40,604 bases of DNA from Burkholderiales bacterium (GTDB taxonomy: Bacteria; Pseudomonadota; Gammaproteobacteria; Burkholderiales; Burkholderiaceae_C). A program made the translations under genes and the position numbers. Below are positions 28,830 through 40,604 of this stretch, piece after piece. Below the pieces are notes generated by a model. The model was given only the letters and a program-made list of their open reading frames with translations, searched no databases and was not told the origin of the DNA. The stretch lies in the NCBI GenBank assembly GCA_018969975.1, contig JAGWXI010000017.1, positions 1 through 40,604 of the forward strand. Reading direction: 5' to 3'. The stretch's first letter is position 1. Each line of letters begins with the position of its first letter.

Positions 28830-29813
28830 TCATTCTGCCCGAATGCCTGCCGCTTTTACAACTGTTCCATATTTGCTTAGGTCTCTAGCTAATTCCGAGC
28901 CAAAGCTCTCAGGTGTACTCGCAGAGGGGGTGATGCCCATGCCCATCAGTCGCTCTCTAACCTCAGGGTCATTGAGTACCAAATTGAGTTCAGTATTGAT
29001 GCGTGTAATGATGTGTCGTGGTGTTTTAGTTGGTGCGAGTAGTCCAACCCAAGAACTGGCTTCAAAGTCAGCTATACCGTTTTCCATGAAAGTGGACACA
29101 TCTGGAAGAGAACTCGCGCGTTTGCTACTGGAGACTGCAATGGGTATTAATTTGCCTGATTTCACGTGCGCAATGGCACCGGCAATGGCTGTGTAGACCA
29201 AGGGAATATTGCCCCCGAGCACATCGGTCAAGGCTTGTCCGCCACCTTTGTAAGGAACATGAACAAGATTTGCGCCAGTTTTTTGGCGTAAGAGTTCACC
29301 AGCAATGTGTGGTGTGCCTCCTGTTCCAGAGGTGCCATACGAGAGCCCCCCTGTTTGAGTTTTGGAAAGTGCTATGACGTCCTTTAAAGTCTTTGCAGCA
29401 AAGTTGGGATGTGCAACCAAGATCAGGACAGCATCGCCAATTTTTCCAATTGGTGAAAAGTCTTTGAGGGTATCGAAACCTGTTTTTGAAAAAACATGTG
29501 GGTTAATGACTAAAGTACCGTCAAAACCTAGAAGCAGGGTGTAACCATCAGGTTCAGCAGTGGCAACCTGCTGTGTACCAATATTGCCCGAAGCTCCGGG
29601 CTTATTGTCAACAATAACTTGTTGCCCTAGTCGTTTGGATAACTGTTCAGCAATCAATCGACCACTTGTGTCGGTAACACCCCCTGGGGTAAATGGGACA
29701 ACTAAGCGAATAGGCTTAGTTGGATAGTTTTGTGCGATTGCATTTCCAAAGAATGCAAGTGTTAAGCCCATCAAAGCAGTTTTAATTGCAAGGGCATGCA
29801 AAGTTTTATGCAT
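28830..29813 (-). CDS. Bug (TctC-type) periplasmic solute receptor 4
   Basis: 327-residue receptor. The signal peptide (ALMGLTLAFFGNAIA) is followed by YPTKPIRLVVPFTPGGVTD, PDGYTLLLGFDG, LSYGTSGTGGTPHIAGELL and LVHVPYKGGGQALTD, all standard Bug segments. ATG 29813 is chosen because AGGAAA is just upstream and it starts the signal peptide; an upstream extension of 24 residues in frame is not plausible. It follows the PEP-mutase family gene by 25 bases, so the two are co-transcribed with the second receptor further upstream. Confidence 0.93.
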   Translation of the reverse strand: MHKTLHALAIKTALMGLTLAFFGNAIAQNYPTKPIRLVVPFTPGGVTDTSGRLIAEQLSKRLGQQVIVDNKPGASGNIGTQQVATAEPDGYTLLLGFDGTLVINPHVFSKTGFDTLKDFSPIGKIGDAVLILVAHPNFAAKTLKDVIALSKTQTGGLSYGTSGTGGTPHIAGELLRQKTGANLVHVPYKGGGQALTDVLGGNIPLVYTAIAGAIAHVKSGKLIPIAVSSSKRASSLPDVSTFMENGIADFEASSWVGLLAPTKTPRHIITRINTELNLVLNDPEVRERLMGMGITPSASTPESFGSELARDLSKYGTVVKAAGIRAE

Positions 29814-29838
29814 GATATTTCCTGTAAGGTGTGAAAAC

Positions 29839-30714
29839 TTAATTTCTCTCAATAAAACGTTTTTCAAATTCCCAAACATCCTCAAAGCCCATGAGCTTTG
29901 TTAAATCGGTAAAGTCGTAGAGTGGCGTTTCACCTCCAATCGACGAGCCATGGCTTCTAAATTGTCGGTAAACACCTTGCATGGCATGAACAGCGGAAAG
30001 TAAAGCGGTGACAGGAAAAATGGCTAACTTATAGCCTAAAGATTCCAATTCATCCTTGGACAAAACCGGAGTTCGCCCTTTCTCCACCATGTTAGCGACA
30101 AGGGGGGTCTTTAACGATTGACCAATAAGCCGCATTTCTTCTTCAGACTCCGGCGATTCAACGAACAAAATATCTGCACCAGCTGCTGCATAGGCTTGAG
30201 CGCGCCGTAAGGCTTCCTCTAAGCCTAAGGTAGTTCGGGCATCGGTGCGAGCGATTATTAAAAAATTTGGATCAGTACGCGAGTCCACAGCTACTTGAAT
30301 TTTTTGAACCATGTCTTCGGTGGAAATAACTCGGCGTCCGGGTGTATGGCCACACTTTTTTGGAAACTCTTGGTCTTCCAACTGAATGGCAGCTGCTCCA
30401 GCGGCCTCATAACCACGAATGGTGTGACGTATATTGAGAAGCCCGCCATAGCCCGTGTCAGCATCGGCAATCAATGGTGTTTGGGCCATTCCTGCCATTG
30501 CTGAGACTCGACTGACCATGTCACTGTAAGTTGCCAGTCCAGCATCGGGTAAGCCCATGTAAGAAGCCACAGTACCGAATCCAGTCATGTAGAGGGCATC
30601 AAACCCAAAGGTGTCTGCCAGACGCAAAGAAACCATGTCAAAAACTCCCGGTGCTAACACCAGACCTGGTTCAGTAAGGCGGCGCCTGAGCCTGGCGCGT
30701 TGTGTTTCACTCAT
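29839..30714 (-). CDS. Isocitrate lyase / PEP mutase family enzyme
   Basis: 291-residue TIM-barrel enzyme that cleaves or forms carbon-carbon or carbon-phosphorus bonds at a 2-oxoacid or dicarboxylate. Marks are APGVFDMVSLRLADTFGF, the metal site LIADADTGYGG (Asp84 and Asp86), QLEDQEFPKKCGH (Glu113, catalytic-loop Cys121 in KKCGH) and a VESPES turn. The KKCGH loop suggests a C-C lyase (methylisocitrate, dimethylmalate or oxaloacetate-type) rather than a PEP mutase. It lies between two Bug receptor genes in a single run, with the oxalate genes upstream. Exact substrate is unknown. Confidence 0.87.
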   Translation of the reverse strand: MSETQRARLRRRLTEPGLVLAPGVFDMVSLRLADTFGFDALYMTGFGTVASYMGLPDAGLATYSDMVSRVSAMAGMAQTPLIADADTGYGGLLNIRHTIRGYEAAGAAAIQLEDQEFPKKCGHTPGRRVISTEDMVQKIQVAVDSRTDPNFLIIARTDARTTLGLEEALRRAQAYAAAGADILFVESPESEEEMRLIGQSLKTPLVANMVEKGRTPVLSKDELESLGYKLAIFPVTALLSAVHAMQGVYRQFRSHGSSIGGETPLYDFTDLTKLMGFEDVWEFEKRFIERN

Positions 30715-30755
30715 GACAGCAATTGCGTTCTAGTTAGACAGAAAACAATTTAAAC

Positions 30756-31727
30756 CTAGTCAAACTTGGCACCAGATTCTTTAATCACTAGGGCCCAACG
30801 TGCTTTTTCGTTGGCTATAAAACTACCAAGAGTTTCTGGTTGTGCGGTGCGCACTTCAGTACCCAGAGAGCCCAATTTTTCGCGCATTTCCTGCGTTGCC
30901 AGAATTTTGCTTAATTCCGCATTCAGTTTACCGATCACATCGCGCGGTGTTCCAGCCGGTGCAAGCAAACCTTGGTAGGAACCTGTTTCAAAACCAGGCA
31001 GAGTTTCTGCAATCGTTGCTAATTCGGGCGCCGATCCGATTCTTTGCAAGCTTGAGATTGCTAAAGGTCGGATACGACCAGATTTCATGGTCGGGTAAGT
31101 CGCCAGCATGCCATTCATAATCACATTAGCTTGACCGCTTGCGACATCGGCGACTGCTTGTGAGCCACCTTTGTAGGGTATGTAGGTCCAACTAATTCCA
31201 GTGCGCTGGGCAAACGCAATGCCAGCCAAATGGGGCGCACCGCCAGTACCAGAGATTGCAAAATTGAGCTTGCTTGGATTAGCCTTGGCATAGTCAATCA
31301 ATTCCTTCACGCTTTGGACAGGAACAGAGGGATGGACACCCAAAACATGGGGCGAATAAGCCACCATACCAACGGGCGAAAAATCCCGAACTGGGTCATA
31401 GGGCATATTTGGATAAACGCTTGGGTTAATAGCTAACGCTCCTACATCTGAAAGTAGCAGGGTGTAGCCATCGGGGGCAGATTTAGCAACATGATCAGCG
31501 CCTACATTTCCATTGGCGCCAGCACGGTTTTCAACAAGCACTGGCTGGCCCCAAGATTCAGTCAATTTTTGTCCAAGAGTGCGCGCCAAAATATCAGAAG
31601 TGCCCCCAGGTGCGAAAGGCACAATGATGCGGATCGCTTTTGCCGGAAAAGCAGTTTGTGCATGAATGGCTGTCGCAGCTATGAGTGCCCATCCAACAAG
31701 ACTCAGAAAGCTTAGTTTTTTGAACAT
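30756..31727 (-). CDS. Bug (TctC-type) periplasmic solute receptor 5
   Basis: 323-residue receptor with a signal peptide (LVGWALIAATAIHA) and the strands FPAKAIRIIVPFAPGGTSD, PDGYTLLLSDVG, LNFAISGTGGAPHLAGIAF and YIPYKGGSQAVAD. It starts 23 bases after fdsA on the same strand and 41 bases before the PEP-mutase family gene. This makes it the receptor nearest the oxalate genes; binding of oxalate or a related short dicarboxylate is a reasonable guess, not shown by sequence. Confidence 0.93.
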   Translation of the reverse strand: MFKKLSFLSLVGWALIAATAIHAQTAFPAKAIRIIVPFAPGGTSDILARTLGQKLTESWGQPVLVENRAGANGNVGADHVAKSAPDGYTLLLSDVGALAINPSVYPNMPYDPVRDFSPVGMVAYSPHVLGVHPSVPVQSVKELIDYAKANPSKLNFAISGTGGAPHLAGIAFAQRTGISWTYIPYKGGSQAVADVASGQANVIMNGMLATYPTMKSGRIRPLAISSLQRIGSAPELATIAETLPGFETGSYQGLLAPAGTPRDVIGKLNAELSKILATQEMREKLGSLGTEVRTAQPETLGSFIANEKARWALVIKESGAKFD

Positions 31728-31750: not shown

Positions 31751-34540
31751 CTACAAATTAAAACTACAAATTTCAGGCGCCTCTCCCCCCGCTGTTACTT
31801 GTACTGCACAGTATTTAAATTCTGGAATTTTTGCAAAAGGGTCTAGTGCGGCATTGGTAAGTTTATTGATCGCAGCTTCAAAATAACAAAACGGAACAAA
31901 AACTGAACCCACAGGTGTGTTTTCATCGGCACGGGCATACAAAGAAACTGCGCCACGTCTTGAGGTGAGGGTGAGCACCTGACCAGCTTTGAAATTGTTA
32001 TCACGTAAATCTTGCGGATGAAACATGGCAACTGGATCAGGCTCAATGGCATCCAAAACGCTGGCACGACGCGTCATGCTTCCTGTATGCCAATGCTCAA
32101 GTTGGCGTCCGGTAATCAGCACCATAGGATATTGTTCATCAGGCTGCTCATTGGCAGGAATAATATCGGCAGGCACAAACAAACCTCGGCCTTTTTCGCG
32201 CGGAAAAACATCTTCAAACACCACAGATTGCCCAGGATCGCCTTCATTTTTACAAGGGTAGGTAACTGCATGATCGCGCTCCAAACGCTGCCATGTGATA
32301 CCAGCAATGCTAGGCATAGTTAGCCGCATTTCGTCAAATACCTCGCTCACGTGGCTGTAGTTCCAATCGAGCCCCATTTTTTGCGCCATTTGTTGGATGA
32401 TCCACAAATCCTGCTTAGCTTGCCCAGGTGGTTGCAATGCCTGTCGTCCCATTTGAACCATTCGATCGGTATTGGTGAAGCTGCCATTTTTTTCAGGAAA
32501 CGCAGAGGCTGGAAGAACCACATCTGCTAGGTAGGCTGTTTCTGTCAGGAAAATATCTTGAACTACCAAGTGCTCGAGTGCGGCCAAAGAAGCACGCGCA
32601 TGGTTAGCGTCAGGGTCAGACATGGCAGGGTTTTCGCCCATGATGTACATGCCTTTGATGCCACCAGCGTCGATCGCATGCATCACCTCCACCACAGTCA
32701 GTCCGGGTTTGTCGTCCAAACTTCCAGAAGGTAATTTCCAAGCTTTTTCAAATTTGCTTTTGGCTATGGGGTCTGTCACACGCTGGTAATCGGGGTACAT
32801 CATGGGGATTAATCCTGCATCTGATGCACCTTGCACATTGTTTTGGCCTCGCAATGGATGCAAACCAGTTCCGGGCCTTCCAATTTGACCCGTCATAAGC
32901 GCCAATGAAATCAAACAGCGCGCATTGTCCGTGCCATGCACGTGCTGTGAAACACCCATGCCCCATAAAATCATGGAAGCTGCTGAGGTCGCATATAAAC
33001 GGGCTACTTGGCGAATTACTTGGGCATCGATACCGCATACGGATGCCATTGCCTCAGGGCTGAACTTTTGAACATTGGTCTTTAAATCATCAAAACCAAT
33101 GGTCCGGCTTTCAATAAACGAAGCGTTGATCAAACCTTCGTTGACGATCACATGCATCATGGCATTGAGCAAGGCCACATCGGTATCGGGTTTGAATTGG
33201 AGGTGGTGCTTAGCCAATCTGGTGAGATCAGATTTTCTGGGGTCGCAAACAATCAATTGCGTCCCATTTTTAACAGCGTTTTTAATCCAGGTGGCCGCAA
33301 CTGGGTGGTTCACCGTAGGGTTGGCGCCAATTACTATCACAACTTCAGCCTTGAGCACATCCATCACGGGATTTGATACTGCGCCAGATCCAATACCTTC
33401 TAACAAAGCTACTACCGAAGAAGCATGACAAAGCCGCGTGCAATGATCCACATTGTTGCTACCAAAACCAGATCGAACTAATTTTTGAAACAAATAAGCT
33501 TCTTCATTACTTCCCTTGGCTGAACCAAAACCTGCAAGTGAGGCCCCACCGTGTTGGTCACGAATGTGCTTGAGCTTACCGCCCGCCAATTCCAATGCTT
33601 CTTCCCAAGAGGCTTCACGAAAATAATCCAGTACCTGACTTGGATCCATGACCATACTCGGATCTTTTGCAACGCCAGATTTTCTAATCAACGGCATAGT
33701 TAATCTATGGGGGTGATGGGCATAGTCAAAACCATAGCGGCCTTTGACGCATAAACGCCCATGATTGGCTGGTCCATCACGACCTTCCACAAACAAAATA
33801 ACGTTGTCTTTGATGTTGTAAGTAATTTGACACCCCACACCGCAGTAAGGGCATACGGAGGGAACTTGTTTATCTGGAACACTTAAACCCACCTCACGAG
33901 CAGGCATGAGTGCACCGGTGGGACATGCTTGTACACATTCACCACAGCCCACGCAAGTCGATGCACCCATGGGGTCATCCATGTCAAAAACTATCTTAGA
34001 TTGATCACCACGAAAGGCCAGTCCTATCACGTCATTGACTTGCTCATCTCGGCATGCACGCACACAGCGGGTGCATTGAATGCAGGCATCTAAATTAACC
34101 GCAATTGCCACATGTGAATTGTCAGATGGGCAAGGTTGACGCGCAGGAAAGCGTGGTTTGTCAAGAGCCATATTGTGGGCCCAATGATCTAGCTCGTTGT
34201 GCCGCGTATAGTCTTTTTCAGGCATATCGCTCAACAACAACTCGAGCACCATTTTTTGCGAATTGACGGCCCGTTCACTGTTTGAGTGAACCACCATATT
34301 GTTCGCAGGTAGACGACAACAAGACGGTGCTAGAACGCGTTCACCTTCAATTTCGACCATACACGCTCGACAATTACCAACTGCCTGCATGCCCTCTTGG
34401 TAACACAAATGAGGAATTTCAATACCTTGAGACTTTGCAATTTCGAGCAAAGATTGGTTGGGCGAACAAGAAACCGCCTTGCCATTGAATTGAAAATTGA
34501 TAGTTGTGGCTTCAACTGCGTTGCTGTTCAACGTGTTCAT
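31751..34540 (-). CDS. fdsA: NAD-dependent formate dehydrogenase, catalytic alpha subunit
   Basis: 929-residue soluble catalytic subunit that oxidises formate to CO2 at a bis-MGD molybdenum (or tungsten) centre. In order: a [2Fe-2S] ferredoxin domain with Cys46, Cys57, Cys60 and Cys74; two [4Fe-4S] sites with CIQCTRCVRAC (153-163) and CVGCGECVQAC (196-206); the FdhA-type cluster CPYCGVGC (230-237) with Cys264; then the molybdopterin domains. The metal ligand is a cysteine, not selenocysteine: HCTRLCHASS, Cys371 followed by His372. The start ATG 34540 lies 29 bases inside the end of the beta-subunit gene, with AAGG upstream, so the two are coupled. It supplies the last step of oxalate breakdown. 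No fdsC or fdsD assembly gene follows in the window. Confidence 0.95.
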   Translation of the reverse strand: MNTLNSNAVEATTINFQFNGKAVSCSPNQSLLEIAKSQGIEIPHLCYQEGMQAVGNCRACMVEIEGERVLAPSCCRLPANNMVVHSNSERAVNSQKMVLELLLSDMPEKDYTRHNELDHWAHNMALDKPRFPARQPCPSDNSHVAIAVNLDACIQCTRCVRACRDEQVNDVIGLAFRGDQSKIVFDMDDPMGASTCVGCGECVQACPTGALMPAREVGLSVPDKQVPSVCPYCGVGCQITYNIKDNVILFVEGRDGPANHGRLCVKGRYGFDYAHHPHRLTMPLIRKSGVAKDPSMVMDPSQVLDYFREASWEEALELAGGKLKHIRDQHGGASLAGFGSAKGSNEEAYLFQKLVRSGFGSNNVDHCTRLCHASSVVALLEGIGSGAVSNPVMDVLKAEVVIVIGANPTVNHPVAATWIKNAVKNGTQLIVCDPRKSDLTRLAKHHLQFKPDTDVALLNAMMHVIVNEGLINASFIESRTIGFDDLKTNVQKFSPEAMASVCGIDAQVIRQVARLYATSAASMILWGMGVSQHVHGTDNARCLISLALMTGQIGRPGTGLHPLRGQNNVQGASDAGLIPMMYPDYQRVTDPIAKSKFEKAWKLPSGSLDDKPGLTVVEVMHAIDAGGIKGMYIMGENPAMSDPDANHARASLAALEHLVVQDIFLTETAYLADVVLPASAFPEKNGSFTNTDRMVQMGRQALQPPGQAKQDLWIIQQMAQKMGLDWNYSHVSEVFDEMRLTMPSIAGITWQRLERDHAVTYPCKNEGDPGQSVVFEDVFPREKGRGLFVPADIIPANEQPDEQYPMVLITGRQLEHWHTGSMTRRASVLDAIEPDPVAMFHPQDLRDNNFKAGQVLTLTSRRGAVSLYARADENTPVGSVFVPFCYFEAAINKLTNAALDPFAKIPEFKYCAVQVTAGGEAPEICSFNL

Positions 34541-36248: not shown

Positions 36249-38378
36249 TTAAATCAATCCTGCTCCGCGTGCCCACTGGTATTTAGCACCTAAGACCGCA
36301 ACAGGAATTTCGGTTGAATAGGCATAGGCAGGAATGCCGTGCTCATACAAATACTGCGCGGCTTCTTCAACTTCTACGTCCCCTGCAAGAGAAGCAACAA
36401 TCGGCTTATCAATGCCTTTTACCCGCATTTCATCGCGTGCCTCGACCATGATCTTGGCAAAAACCATAGGCGGGGTCACGATGGTGTGCCAATAACCCAA
36501 GATCAATGCATGGATGCGTGGATCGCTGAGCCCCAATAAGACCGTGTTTTTATAAGTGATGGGTGGCTCCCCCCCCGTGATGTCGACGGGATTGCCTGCT
36601 GCGCCAAAGGGCGGTATGAATTTTCTGAAGGCTTTGTCTAAATCATCAGGCATTGGCATCAAACTGAGTTTGTTGTCAACGCATGCGTCAGACAGTAGTA
36701 CCCCAGAACCACCTGCACCAGTGATGATGACCACATTCTCACCTTTAGGCGTGGGCAATATGGGAACACCGCGCGCAAAGTCGAGCATGTCACGCAAACT
36801 GCGTGCACGAATAACACCAATTTGCTGAAACACGTCTTCGTAAATTTTGTCATTACCTGCCAAAGCGCCCGTGTGTGAACTAGCAGCTTTTGCCCCTGCG
36901 GAAGTGCGCCCAGCTTTCAAAACAATGACTGGTTTCTTTTTGGAAACACGTCTTGCAACTTCGGCAAATGCGCGGCCGTCTTTTAGATCTTCGCAATGTT
37001 GCGCTATTACCTTGGTGTTGGGGTCTTGTTCGAAAAATATCAGCAAGTCATCTTCGTCAATATCTGACTTGTTGCCCAAGCCAACAATCGCAGAGACTCC
37101 CATTTTGGCGGAACGGCTAAATCCAATAATAGCCATACCAATACCACCAGATTGGGAAGACAAAGCCACAGATCCTTTGACATCGTAGGCAGTGCAAAAA
37201 GTTGCGCACAAATTAGCTGGCGTGTAATAAAAACCGTAGATGTTGGGGCCCATCATGCGGATGTTGTATTTCTGGCCAATGGCGACCAACTCCTCTTGCA
37301 ACTCGTGGTTGCCAGTTTCGGCAAAACCAGAGGGAATCAGCACAGCACCGGCAATTTTTTTCTCACCACATTCAATAAGCGCACCGGCCACAAATTTGGC
37401 AGGTATCGCAAAAACTGCAGTGTCGATTTCGGAGGGAATATCTTTCACACTTTTGAAAGCCTTGTGCCCCATGATTTCATCGGCACTGGGATGTATTGGA
37501 TAAATGTGTCCTTTGTACCCGCCGTTAATCAAGTTTTTCATGACCGAGTTACCGATCTTGCCGGCTTCATTGGACGCGCCAATGACAGCCACAGACTTGG
37601 GTTGCATGATGCGATTCATGGAGGCCAACACTTGGTCTTCTGGTGGACGATATCGTGGTTTTTTGGCAGAAAAATCCACAACGATGCGCACATCAGCAGC
37701 AATCGCAGAATCTTTGCTGGCAAAAACTGGATTCAAATCAAGCTCGGATATTTCAGGAAAATCAGTAACTAAGTTGCTGACTTGAACAATCAAATTCGCC
37801 AAGGCTTGGCGGTTCACTGGATCACTGCCACGAACGCCTTTGAGCATGTCAGCGGCCTTGATGCCGTCGAGCATTGAAAGGGCGTCTTCCTGGCTAGCGG
37901 GTGCCAACCTAAAGGTAATGTCTTTCAAAACCTCGACTAAAACACCACCCAAACCAAAAGCCACTAGCTTGCCAAAGCTAGGATCAGTCACAGCGCCAAT
38001 GATGACTTCTTGTCCACCTTTGATCATCTGCTGTACTTGCACGCCAACAATTTGTGCGTCAGCTTTGTAAGCCTTGGCATTGGCAATGATCTTGTTATAG
38101 GCGTCTGCCGCTTCTTGCGCAGACTTGACACCAACAATCACACCGCCAGCTTCTGTTTTATGAAGGATATCTGGCGATACGATTTTCATCACCACAGGAA
38201 ATCCCATTTGTGCAGCAGCTTTTTCTGCTTGATCAGAACTGTTAGCCACGGTTTCTTGTGGCACCGTGATCCCATAAGCATCACAAACCAACTTGCCCTC
38301 TGGGGCGGTCAATGCATCTCTTCCTGCAGATTTCACCTCATCCAGAATTTTTCTCACTACAGACTTATTGTTATGCAT
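36249..38378 (-). CDS. ADP-forming acyl-CoA synthetase, beta-alpha fused
   Basis: 709-residue NDP-forming acyl-CoA synthetase that interconverts an acyl-CoA, ADP and phosphate with the acid, CoA and ATP. The ATP-grasp (beta) domain comes first (about 20-240), with SPDILHKTEAGGV (His73), LVAFGLGGVLVEVLKD and SELDLNPVFA. The CoA-binding and ligase (alpha) domains follow from about 258, with PKSVAVIGAS, LSSQSGGIGMAI and the phospho-histidine segment SSHTGALAGND (His502). Both relay histidines are present. The order is reversed compared with E. coli PatZ-type proteins. GPNIYGFYYTPAN replaces the usual GPNCLG. AAGGAA precedes the ATG. Placed between frc and fdsB, it could prime oxalate activation or recover ATP from formyl-CoA; its acid substrate is unknown. 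Confidence 0.88.
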   Translation of the reverse strand: MHNNKSVVRKILDEVKSAGRDALTAPEGKLVCDAYGITVPQETVANSSDQAEKAAAQMGFPVVMKIVSPDILHKTEAGGVIVGVKSAQEAADAYNKIIANAKAYKADAQIVGVQVQQMIKGGQEVIIGAVTDPSFGKLVAFGLGGVLVEVLKDITFRLAPASQEDALSMLDGIKAADMLKGVRGSDPVNRQALANLIVQVSNLVTDFPEISELDLNPVFASKDSAIAADVRIVVDFSAKKPRYRPPEDQVLASMNRIMQPKSVAVIGASNEAGKIGNSVMKNLINGGYKGHIYPIHPSADEIMGHKAFKSVKDIPSEIDTAVFAIPAKFVAGALIECGEKKIAGAVLIPSGFAETGNHELQEELVAIGQKYNIRMMGPNIYGFYYTPANLCATFCTAYDVKGSVALSSQSGGIGMAIIGFSRSAKMGVSAIVGLGNKSDIDEDDLLIFFEQDPNTKVIAQHCEDLKDGRAFAEVARRVSKKKPVIVLKAGRTSAGAKAASSHTGALAGNDKIYEDVFQQIGVIRARSLRDMLDFARGVPILPTPKGENVVIITGAGGSGVLLSDACVDNKLSLMPMPDDLDKAFRKFIPPFGAAGNPVDITGGEPPITYKNTVLLGLSDPRIHALILGYWHTIVTPPMVFAKIMVEARDEMRVKGIDKPIVASLAGDVEVEEAAQYLYEHGIPAYAYSTEIPVAVLGAKYQWARGAGLI

Positions 38379-38418: not shown

Positions 38419-39666
38419 CTAAATAACTTTAGCGGCACGAAGTTCATGTATCTGATCTTCACGGTAGCCAAGTTGCTTCAATACTTCTTCAGTGTGCTCT
38501 CCAAGCAATGGTGAGCGCAATACTTCCGTGGGACTGTCTGAGAGTTTGATAGGGTTGCCAACACTGAGGTATTTGCCACGCGTGGGGTGATCAACTTCAA
38601 CCACAGTACCAGTCTCGCGAAGCGATGGCTCCTGCGCAATTTCTTTCATCGACAAGATGGGTCCACAAGGAATGTCAAACTTATTCAGGATGTCCATGGC
38701 TTCAAACTTTGTCTTGCTCATAGTCCATTGTTCGATACGATCAAAAATGGCTTTGAGTCTAGGCAAGCGCGCTGTCGGAGAAGCGTAATCTGGATCGGTG
38801 ATCCAATCTTCCTGTCCAATCACTTTACAAATCGCACCCCATACCGGCGCTTGGGTGATGAAATAAATATAAGCATTAGGATCTGTTTCCCATCCCTTGC
38901 ATTTCAAAATCCAGCCCGGTTGCCCGCCGCCTGACGCATTGCCAGCCCGAGGCACAGCATCACCGAATTTGCCATCTGGGTATTGCGGGTACTCTTTAAG
39001 TACTTGGGTTCTGTCTAATCGTTGTTGATCGCGTAATTTCACACGGCACAAGTTAAGCACAGCGTCTTGCATGGAGGCCAAAACCTTTTGCCCACGCCCT
39101 GTGCTATTGCGCTGGTAGAGCGCTGAAACAATGCCCAGCGCCAAATGAACGCCTGTGCCACTGTCACCGATTTGTGCCCCAGTCACAACCGGGGGGCCGT
39201 CATCAAAACCGGTGGTCGATGCGGCGCCACCTGCGCATTGCGCCACATTTTCATAGACCTTGCAATCTTCATAGGGGCCAGGACCAAAGCCTTTAACAGA
39301 CGCCACAATCATCCGCGGATTGAGTTCTTGAATGCGCTCCCATGTATACCCCATGCGATCGAGCGCACCGGGCGCAAAATTCTCGACCAATACATCGCAA
39401 GTTTTGATCAGTGTGTTGAGCACCTCTTTGCCTTTTGGATTTTTGGTGTCGAGCGTGATGGAACGCTTGTTGTGGTTGAGCATGGTGAAGTACAAGCTGT
39501 CCACATCTGGAATGTCTCGGAGTTGTCCACGAGTGGCATCTCCTTCTCCAGCTTTTTCAACTTTGATTACATCTGCTCCAAACCAAGCCAACAACTGTGT
39601 GCATGTTGGACCTGATTGGACATGTGTGAAGTCCAGAATTCGAACTCCATCCAGCGCTTTGCTCAT
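38419..39666 (-). CDS. frc: Formyl-CoA:oxalate CoA-transferase
   Basis: 415-residue class III CoA-transferase that moves CoA from formyl-CoA to oxalate. The diagnostic residues agree with Oxalobacter Frc: Gln17 in THVQSGP, the catalytic aspartate Asp168 in [10 protein letters not shown] (Asp169 there), and the glycine loop [11 protein letters not shown] (242-252). The segments [10 protein letters not shown] and [11 protein letters not shown] are also characteristic. AGGGAG lies eight bases before the ATG. It is 25 bases after oxc, giving the classical oxc-frc pair in one transcript. Confidence 0.95.
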
Positions 39667-39691: not shown

Positions 39692-40604
39692 TCATTTTTT
39701 CTTGTTTGCTTGTGGATTGAGCATGGTGATACGCCCGCTCTCAGTACCCGCAGTTTCGTCAATGACAGCATTGATCAAGGTGGGCTTACCTGACCCAATA
39801 GCCTCCTTAAGGGCAACGCTGAGTTGCTCAGAGGTCGTGGCATGCACCCCTACGCCACCGAATGCCTCGATAATTTTGTCGTAGCGAGCATCCTTCACAA
39901 ACACTGTTGGTGCCACATCACTGCCGCCAGAAGGATTGACATCGGTGCCTCGGTAGACGCCGTTGTTATTGAATACAACAACGCACACAGGCAGGTTGTA
40001 GCGGCAAATAGTTTCAACCTCCATGCCACTGAATCCAAATGCGCTGTCGCCTTCAATAGCAATTACCGGTTTACCGGTGGTCACAGCTGCAGCCACCGAA
40101 AAACCCATACCAATTCCCATAATGCCCCAAGTTCCAACATCTAAACGTTTACGTGGTTGGTACATATCCACAATGCTGCGAGCAAAATCGAGTGTGTTGG
40201 CGCCCTCATTAACGACCATGACATCAGGTCTAGATTTCACTACATCACGAATAACGGCCAAGGCACTATGAAAATTCATAGGTGATGGTGTCAATGCCAA
40301 GGTTTGCGCCATCTTGCTCAAGTTTTTTTCTTTTCTCTCTGCAATGGCATCTATCCAAGTTGCTGGGGGTTTGACCCAAGAAGCGTCAAGTCCTTTTAAC
40401 AGTGCGCTGACACAAGAGCCGATATCGCCAATAACAGGTGCAGCAATAGCAACATTGCTGTCAATTTCAGTCGGAGCAATGTCGATTTGAATAAATTTTT
40501 TGGGATGTGGCGCGCCCCATGTTTTACCCTTGCCGTGAGACAGCAACCAGTTCAGGCGCGCGCCTATCAACAACACCACGTCAGCTTCAGCCAAGACATA
40601 AGAG
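39692..40604 (-). CDS. oxc: Oxalyl-CoA decarboxylase, C-terminal part (5' end outside window)
   Basis: About 300 C-terminal residues of a thiamine-diphosphate enzyme that turns oxalyl-CoA into formyl-CoA and CO2. The visible part begins in the middle domain (LIGARLNWLLSHGKGKTWG) and contains the pyrophosphate-binding stretch GDSAFGFSGMEVETICRYN with the later NN of the ThDP motif, and the segments GTWGIMGIGMGF and LVNEGAN-like VVNEGANTLD. These match the Oxalobacter enzyme closely. The protein ends in KKK. The frame is open to the last base of the window, so the start is upstream on the minus strand. Confidence 0.95.
   Translation of the reverse strand, partial: SYVLAEADVVLLIGARLNWLLSHGKGKTWGAPHPKKFIQIDIAPTEIDSNVAIAAPVIGDIGSCVSALLKGLDASWVKPPATWIDAIAERKEKNLSKMAQTLALTPSPMNFHSALAVIRDVVKSRPDVMVVNEGANTLDFARSIVDMYQPRKRLDVGTWGIMGIGMGFSVAAAVTTGKPVIAIEGDSAFGFSGMEVETICRYNLPVCVVVFNNNGVYRGTDVNPSGGSDVAPTVFVKDARYDKIIEAFGGVGVHATTSEQLSVALKEAIGSGKPTLINAVIDETAGTESGRITMLNPQANKKK

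What the first reader, a model, noticed from the sequence alone, without database searches (positions are those of the whole stretch)
36249..38378. ADP-forming acyl-CoA synthetase built into an oxalate-degradation operon
The gene lies between frc and the formate dehydrogenase genes, three bases before fdsB, and both catalytic histidines (His73, His502) are intact. Oxalate breakdown by Oxc and Frc is a CoA relay that needs initial charging and normally loses the thioester energy of any formyl-CoA hydrolysed. An NDP-forming synthetase could charge oxalate or formate using ATP, or run in reverse to make ATP from formyl-CoA. The second idea would be substrate-level phosphorylation from oxalate. 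The beta-alpha domain order and the GPNIYG variant near the CoA site hint at a special subfamily.
Basis: partly seen in the sequence, partly recalled or inferred. Interest (0 to 1): 0.72.

Follow-up and report, generated by a model that had tools for sequence, protein, structure and literature searches.

The report
ATP-driven charging enzyme for oxalate breakdown
Next to the two textbook oxalate-breakdown genes sits a third, highly conserved gene for an ATP-using enzyme that probably attaches coenzyme A to oxalate (or formate), which would supply a missing starting step of a pathway that many soil and water bacteria carry.

Summary
The gene is real: 709 codons, minus strand, between frc and fdsB (3 bp gap), both catalytic histidines present. 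It belongs to a sharply bounded subfamily of ADP-forming acyl-CoA synthetases: 64-94% identity across Alpha- and Betaproteobacteria and Actinomycetota; in the plasmid collection the next listed relative is 39%. The subfamily tracks oxalate genes: of 80 genome loci 68 carry frc nearby and the other 12 genomes carry it elsewhere; 16 of 16 plasmid records with the gene hold frc. The reverse is not true: many frc genomes lack it. Charging (oxalate, less likely formate, plus ATP and CoA) fits, because thioester is lost when oxalyl-CoA is reduced to glyoxylate or formyl-CoA hydrolyses. Invariant pocket residues (Tyr381, Gly412, Trp630-His631) differ from the acetate enzyme in ways that may favour oxalate; suggestive only. 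The listings of my literature searches showed no such bacterial enzyme, and one study says the initial oxalate CoA-transferase has no known gene. Catalysis is untested.

The parts
36249..38378 (-). ADP-forming acyl-CoA synthetase of the oxalate-linked subfamily (709 aa; here 'acs')
38160..38162 (-). codon of His73, ATP-grasp phosphohistidine (aligns with Nmar_0206 His535)
36873..36875 (-). codon of His502, swinging-loop phosphohistidine (aligns with Nmar_0206 His256)
37233..37250 (-). GPNIYG (residues 377-382); Tyr381 is at the acyl-pocket position of Nmar_0206 L131
   Evidence: invariant 95/95 and 240/240; pocket position from PMC11494057 section 9
37137..37157 (-). SQSGGIG (residues 408-414); Gly412 at the pocket position of Nmar_0206 A164
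36483..36497 (-). GYWHT (residues 628-632), near the uncertainly aligned region of pocket residue S385'
   Evidence: invariant 95/95, 240/240; YCQT at this place in ACD1; numbering
38419..39666 (-). frc, formyl-CoA:oxalate CoA-transferase (TIGR03253 737 bits, cut-off 504)
39692..40604 (-). oxc, oxalyl-CoA decarboxylase, C-terminal 300 aa only; cut by the contig end
34512..36245 (-). fdsB-like NADH-side subunit of formate dehydrogenase (2Fe-2S thioredoxin-like + NuoF-like)
31751..34540 (-). fdsA, formate dehydrogenase alpha subunit (TIGR01591 755 bits, cut-off 666)

Best explanation
The gene encodes a dedicated ATP-dependent charging enzyme of the oxalate pathway. ATP phosphorylates His73, the phosphate passes to His502 on the swinging loop, an activated acyl intermediate forms at the acyl/CoA site and CoA displaces phosphate, giving ADP, Pi and an acyl-CoA. 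The acid is most likely oxalate (oxalyl-CoA, feeding Oxc directly), less likely formate (formyl-CoA, feeding Frc); either fills the CoA relay at start-up and replaces thioester lost when oxalyl-CoA is reduced to glyoxylate or formyl-CoA hydrolyses. Shown: gene, domains, catalytic histidines, predicted fold, subfamily limits in the sets searched, linkage to oxalate genes. Inferred: direction, substrate, physiological role. My odds: dedicated to the oxalate pathway 0.93; ATP-consuming charging as main role 0.75; substrate oxalate 0.5, formate 0.25.
For: Linkage: of 80 loci (<=6 kb each side, many contigs shorter) frc in 68, oxc 56, tppB 11, oxlT 12, fds 21 at >=55% identity; 73 have at least one of frc, oxc, tppB, oxlT. 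The 12 loci without frc all have frc elsewhere in the genome: 8 of 8, 4 of 4. Plasmids: 16 of 16 records with the subfamily hold frc; 41 frc records (E<=1e-130) among 72,556. Burkholderiales sample: 4 of 399 genomes have acs, all 4 among the 15 with frc >=80% identity. Clade of 95 with stem 0.56; largest within-distance 0.51 against 2.24 to the outgroup, on every sixth member. Assimilation genes nearby: glyoxylate carboligase (one representative scored, TIGR01504 1177 bits, cut-off 711; that cluster in 8 of 80 loci) and PanE/ApbA-type reductases (6 of 80 at >=40%), a class that includes enzymes linking oxalyl-CoA and glyoxylate (passages; direct relation not tested). Pocket: Tyr381, Gly412, Trp630-His631 invariant where acetate enzyme ACD1 has Phe, Ala, Cys-Gln. 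Formyl-CoA is the least stable of four acyl-CoAs measured in quenched assay mixtures, half-life 1.9 h (PMC3720670 figure legend). A priming enzyme has precedent in acetyl-CoA-using YfdE.
Against: No assay. In the window's own assembly no glyoxylate carboligase over cut-off (326.6 of 711 bits), no RuBisCO and only weak PanE matches, so the assimilatory drain is not shown here (assembly 89% complete). 11 of the 15 frc >=80% Burkholderiales genomes lack acs, so the pathway can run without it. In 35 of 68 loci with frc the nearest strong frc is on the opposite strand; it is directly upstream within 600 nt in 29. Genomes of L010 (MAG) and L018 have neither oxc nor tppB at E<=1e-60, and L010 and L041 show frc only as fragments. 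Pocket loops are the poorest part of the model (385-392, 491-505, 591-601 under pLDDT 50), so the substrate argument rests on sequence alone.
Confidence: 0.68

Rival explanations
1. Formate--CoA ligase: the enzyme makes formyl-CoA from formate, ATP and CoA, and Frc passes the CoA to oxalate. Same charging role, other substrate.
For: Found with frc in all 80 loci or their genomes, twice as fragments; formate is a product of the operon; fdsB directly downstream in 18 of 80 loci.
Against: Pocket changes relative to the acetate enzyme add room and polar or basic groups (Ala to Gly, Phe to Tyr, Gln to His), the opposite of what exclusion of acetate in favour of smaller formate would need. It would compete with formate dehydrogenase for formate.
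Confidence: 0.2
2. ATP-forming direction with thioester from glyoxylate: a PanE-type enzyme oxidises glyoxylate to oxalyl-CoA, Oxc makes formyl-CoA, and this enzyme turns oxalyl- or formyl-CoA into acid plus ATP.
For: ADP-forming enzymes are reversible in principle (recalled). In the four long loci without frc, oxc or tppB a PanE-like gene lies within 6 kb: adjacent in L052, 3-5 kb away at 46-51% identity in L049, L050 and L055 (a 90-residue piece in L055). Frc and Oxc of Bradyrhizobium diazoefficiens are listed among L-arabinose proteins, a sugar that yields glyoxylate (PMC5996035 passages); ATP from oxalyl-CoA via a CoA-transferase and succinyl-CoA synthetase is reported in Pseudomonas fluorescens (PMC2752808 passages).
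Against: The window operon has no PanE gene; most loci have frc or oxc, where oxalate is the expected substrate. Those four genomes also have frc and oxc elsewhere.
Confidence: 0.15
3. Substrate-level phosphorylation from oxalate.
For: Reversible enzyme class; the operon makes formyl-CoA.
Against: Mass balance: Frc + Oxc yield no net thioester, so each formyl-CoA drained must be paid back to activate the next oxalate. Follows from the established reactions.
Confidence: 0.02
4. A general acetate or small-acid activating enzyme that merely lives in the operon.
Against: Linkage to oxalate genes across classes and phyla with repeated change of the partner decarboxylase; NCBIfam acetate models not reached; invariant pocket substitutions.
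Confidence: 0.08

Closest known systems
ADP-forming acetyl-CoA synthetase ACD1 of Ca. Korarchaeum (PDB 4xyl, 4xym, 4yak and others)
   Different: Two chains instead of one; Phe, Ala and Cys-Gln where this subfamily has Tyr381, Gly412 and Trp630-His631; no oxalate link known to me
3-hydroxypropionate--CoA ligase (ADP-forming) of Nitrosopumilus maritimus (PDB 9y43)
   Different: About 30% identity; NF045492 470 bits against a cut-off of 1300
YfdE / UctC acetyl-CoA:oxalate CoA-transferase (PMC3720670, passages)
   Different: Class III CoA-transferase spending acetyl-CoA, not an ATP-grasp ligase; unrelated family
Oxalyl-CoA synthetase AAE3 (plants) and its fungal counterpart (AMP-forming type, recalled)
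   Same: Oxalate activation to oxalyl-CoA (abstracts in listings)
   Different: AMP-binding enzyme family; no such domain here
Type II oxalate degradation (Oxc, Frc, OxlT)
   Same: frc, oxc and formate dehydrogenase in the window; oxlT beside the gene in 12 of 80 relatives
   Different: The scheme in PMC10192776 (section 3) has no ATP-dependent enzyme; its first step, an oxalate CoA-transferase, is listed there as without a gene

Membership tests
ADP-forming (NDP-forming) acyl-CoA synthetases | ATP-grasp + CoA-binding + Succ_CoA_lig + Ligase-CoA domains | tested here: met
   all over Pfam cut-offs
ADP-forming (NDP-forming) acyl-CoA synthetases | two phosphorylatable histidines (swinging loop and ATP-grasp) | tested here: met
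   His502 and His73 aligned with Nmar_0206 His256 and His535
ADP-forming (NDP-forming) acyl-CoA synthetases | fold | tested here: met
ADP-forming (NDP-forming) acyl-CoA synthetases | acid + ATP + CoA gives acyl-CoA + ADP + Pi | not testable with these tools
   needs purified enzyme
Acetate--CoA ligase equivalogs (TIGR02717, NF045494) | curated score cut-off | tested here: not met
   474.9 of 567; 495 of 1200 bits
4-hydroxybutyrate / 3-hydroxypropionate--CoA ligases (NF045493, NF045492) | curated score cut-off | tested here: not met
   573.5 and 470.3 of 1300 bits
AMP-forming oxalate--CoA ligase (AAE3 type) | AMP-binding domain | tested here: not met
   absent from Pfam matches at E<=0.001
Oxc-Frc oxalate degradation operon | Frc over cut-off | tested here: met
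   TIGR03253 737 of 504 bits
Oxc-Frc oxalate degradation operon | Oxc over cut-off | tested here: inconclusive
   only the C-terminal 300 aa in the contig: TIGR03254 476 of 739 bits
Dedicated oxalate (or formate) CoA ligase | occurs with frc | tested here: met
   frc in 68 of 80 loci and in the genomes of the other 12; in L010 and L041 only fragments; 16 of 16 plasmid records
Dedicated oxalate (or formate) CoA ligase | occurs with a decarboxylase (oxc or tppB) | tested here: inconclusive
   67 of 80 loci locally and 7 of 7 of the genomes without local oxalate genes; L010 and L018 genomes have neither; L011, L031, L068, L071 not tested
Dedicated oxalate (or formate) CoA ligase | activity with oxalate or formate | not testable with these tools
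   needs assay

The most novel reading that the evidence does not exclude
This is a long-missing gene for ATP-driven oxalate activation in bacteria: a reversible ADP-forming oxalate--CoA ligase that charges the relay on oxalate and can return ATP when oxalyl-CoA comes from glyoxylate. It works with either of two decarboxylases: classical Oxc, or a second, 2-hydroxyacyl-CoA-lyase-like TPP enzyme (TppB) that has repeatedly replaced Oxc and would be a second kind of oxalyl-CoA decarboxylase.
Probability: 0.35. Interest if true: 0.78.

Novelty: new variant of a known kind. Interest (0 to 1): 0.62.

Why it matters
The CoA relay of oxalate breakdown cannot start itself and loses thioester whenever carbon is assimilated through oxalyl-CoA; a 2023 study states that no gene is known for the initial oxalate CoA-transferase described in 1961 nor for formyl-CoA hydrolase (PMC10192776 section 3). 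A third partner gene in many aerobic oxalate degraders would change the energy budget (one ATP per charging event), give a more specific marker than frc, which that study calls ubiquitous across metabolisms, and offer an ADP-forming oxalyl-CoA or formyl-CoA synthetase for one-carbon synthetic pathways.

Tried and rejected
Rejected: ATP gain from oxalate (mass balance). Rejected: beta-alpha order as a special sign (9y43 has it). Considered: acs as a strict alternative to a second Frc copy. In the Burkholderiales sample all 11 frc>=80% genomes without acs carry a second Frc copy of 66-70% identity and the 4 with acs do not, in several cases in oxc-frcA-frcB order; but L019's genome has both, L018's seems to (a 68% copy elsewhere), 7 of the 11 are one genus, and both copies pass the formyl-CoA transferase model, so I do not lean on it. 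Checked: a SucC/SucD-like pair beside acs (14 of 80); one representative passes the succinate models and misses the malate one; role left open. Foldseek and VIA-align gave nothing beyond the expected superfamily. Papers: 10.1128/JB.00288-12 (oxalyl-CoA reduction in Methylobacterium extorquens, title recalled) and PMC11461619 are not held, so prior mention of this gene there cannot be excluded. Literature searches were made; I saw listings only, except: whole text PMC9476978; passages of PMC7486775, PMC12927642, PMC11494057 plus its section 9, PMC8411744, PMC3720670, PMC10192776 plus its section 3, PMC2752808, PMC5116747, PMC6994688, PMC4926349, PMC5996035, PMC6759348.

Full report
What is there. 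The frame 36249-38378 lies on the minus strand and encodes 709 residues. On that strand the order is oxc (cut by the end of the contig), frc, acs, fdsB, fdsA, with gaps of 40 bp (frc-acs) and 3 bp (acs-fdsB). Frc and the formate dehydrogenase alpha subunit pass their NCBIfam cut-offs; Oxc is a 300-residue C-terminal piece and cannot be scored fairly. The window is one contig of a 2.72 Mb assembly, 89% complete. The nearest named relatives are a Betaproteobacteria MAG (94% identity) and a Limnohabitans MAG from Lake Baikal (92%).

A sharply bounded subfamily. In the plasmid collection 16 records carry a match of 63.8-81% identity; of the other 297 none reaches 60%, and among the 60 rows listed the next is 39%. 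This gap was measured in that collection only; the genome scan kept only its best 80 (79-94%) and the protein searches listed only the best 120 each. A tree of 95 subfamily sequences and 11 outgroups puts the 95 in one clade (support 0.905, midpoint root) with stem 0.56; the largest distance among every sixth member is 0.51 and the smallest to the outgroup 2.24. Four partial sequences were dropped. Members occur in Alpha- and Betaproteobacteria, in MAGs labelled Gammaproteobacteria and Acidobacteria, and in Actinomycetota: Nonomuraea, Streptomyces, Streptosporangium, Amycolatopsis and others. The motifs GPNIYG, SQSGGIG and GYWHT are present in 240 of 240 listed homologues, the window's own protein included.

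It tracks oxalate genes. I fetched 80 loci (of 379 found) with up to 6 kb on each side. At 55% identity or more, 68 carry frc, 56 oxc, 11 a different TPP enzyme (tppB), 12 oxlT, 21 formate dehydrogenase genes, 14 a sucC+sucD-like pair, and, at 40%, 6 a PanE-like gene; 73 of 80 have at least one of frc, oxc, tppB, oxlT. The 12 loci without frc all have it elsewhere in the genome: 8 of 8 and 4 of 4. Of all 23 genomes or records tested, chosen mainly because frc was missing locally or tppB was present, 21 have frc; the misses are the MAGs behind L010 and L041, whose loci carry only frc fragments. In the plasmid collection 16 of 16 records with acs are among the 41 records with frc, out of 72,556; a hypergeometric figure of 10^-53 ignores relatedness. 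In a Burkholderiales sample 4 of 399 genomes have acs and all four are among the 15 with frc at 80% or more (1.3e-6, but three of the four are one genus). A class-wide sample had acs in 2 of 276. The reverse does not hold: 11 of those 15 frc genomes lack acs, so it is a frequent but dispensable partner. Nor is it always one operon: of the 68 loci with frc, 29 have it directly upstream on the same strand and 35 have it on the other strand.

Decarboxylase partners. In 11 of 80 loci the place of oxc is taken by TppB, about 26% identical to Oxc and nearest in the PDB to 2-hydroxyacyl-CoA lyase 7pt3 (E 7e-78) ahead of oxalyl-CoA decarboxylases. No locus has both. Of the 11 tppB genomes one has a real oxc as well (L024's MAG, 68-79%); one other match is only 33%. 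Conversely the seven genomes without any local oxalate gene all have oxc (7 of 7) and none has a tppB above 31%. Against a tidy rule: the genomes of L010 (MAG) and L018 have neither oxc nor tppB at E<=1e-60; at L018 the contig ends inside frc. The order tppB-frc-acs is seen in Cupriavidus, Caballeronia, Nonomuraea and Streptomyces plasmids or chromosomes; in Phyllobacterium tppB-frc runs divergent from oxlT-acs. On the acs tree the partner switches at least 9 times among 84 labelled tips (shuffled labels: mean 15.7, minimum 12; 11 tips unlabelled, seven labels taken from genome searches; several branches are weak). The simplest reading is that TppB does Oxc's job. It lacks the C-terminal ESGRI stretch of Oxc, so this needs an assay.

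How it most likely works. Frc and Oxc conserve the thioester; their sum is oxalate to formate plus CO2. So the relay needs a first charge, and each oxalyl-CoA reduced to glyoxylate or each formyl-CoA hydrolysed must be replaced; in quenched assay mixtures formyl-CoA had the shortest half-life of four acyl-CoAs, 1.9 h. An ADP-forming ligase using oxalate or formate does exactly this. Genes for that drain lie near acs in several lineages: glyoxylate carboligase in Bradyrhizobium (one representative, TIGR01504 1177 bits; that cluster in 8 of 80 loci) and PanE-like genes (adjacent in L052, 3-5 kb away elsewhere). ApbA2 of Cupriavidus necator and PanE2 of Methylobacterium, of the same broad class, link oxalyl-CoA and glyoxylate (passages); I did not compare them directly. 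In Bradyrhizobium diazoefficiens the hypothetical gene blr3159, by gene order probably this acs (my inference, not checked), appears in one regulatory table with the glyoxylate genes blr3167-3168 (PMC6759348 passage). For the window's own organism the drain is not shown: no glyoxylate carboligase over cut-off, no RuBisCO, weak PanE matches. There the enzyme may simply keep the relay filled while formate is burnt for NADH.

Substrate. Of the residues within 5 A of the acetyl group in ACD1 (PMC11494057 section 9), the conserved Phe and Gly are kept (Phe394, Gly602), while Nmar L131 (Phe in ACD1) is Tyr381, Nmar A164 (Ala in ACD1) is Gly412, and near S385' ACD1's YCQT is YWHT; these are invariant in 95 of 95. 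More room plus a hydroxyl and an imidazole suit a second carboxylate, hence oxalate over formate. The alignment near S385' is uncertain, and the model is weak in the pocket loops.

The backward reaction. Substrate-level phosphorylation from oxalate is excluded by stoichiometry. With glyoxylate as source of oxalyl-CoA it is possible, and a related scheme using a CoA-transferase plus succinyl-CoA synthetase is reported (PMC2752808 passages).

Known or new. Known pieces: the superfamily, the Oxc-Frc pathway, oxalyl-CoA synthetases of plants (listings), the acetyl-CoA-dependent primer YfdE. I found no report of an ADP-forming oxalate or formate ligase in the rows listed, and one study states that the initial oxalate CoA-transferase has no known gene. 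The searched library lacks most subscription papers. I file it as a new variant of a known kind.

Noticed in passing
L030:1652-3403 (-) and 10 other loci; L082, L085, L088-L090, L092: TppB: a 2-hydroxyacyl-CoA-lyase-like TPP enzyme found in oxc's place beside frc and acs in Alpha- and Betaproteobacteria and Actinomycetota; possible second kind of oxalyl-CoA decarboxylase.
   Followed up: partly
L026:8211-10324, L092:9259-11375, L086:9210-11286, L089:1829-3855: A SucC/SucD-like pair near acs in 14 of 80 loci, in Phyllobacterium followed by PEP carboxylase; a second ADP-forming CoA ligase in the oxalate cluster, substrate unknown.
   Followed up: partly
L144, L147, L148, L153 (positions): These oxalate operons carry two tandem Frc paralogues (64-68% and 82-86% identical to the window's Frc). 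For the one pair tested (L144), the solved Oxalobacter and E. coli Frc score better with the first type; the window's Frc is of the second type.
   Followed up: partly
window 39692-40604 and G000 contig C139:3-359: oxc is cut by the contig end; a TPP-enzyme N-terminal piece at the edge of contig C139 may be its other part.
   Followed up: no
window 28830-31727: A PEP-mutase/isocitrate-lyase-family gene sits between two TctC-type solute-binding protein genes downstream of fdsA; tctC-like genes, with what look like tctB and tctA (by eye, not scored), also lie upstream of acs in some relatives such as L026, perhaps an uptake system.
   Followed up: no
Public annotation names most listed members 'acetate--CoA ligase family protein' or 'acetyl coenzyme A synthetase (ADP forming)-like protein' where a name is given, which hides the oxalate link.
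   Followed up: yes
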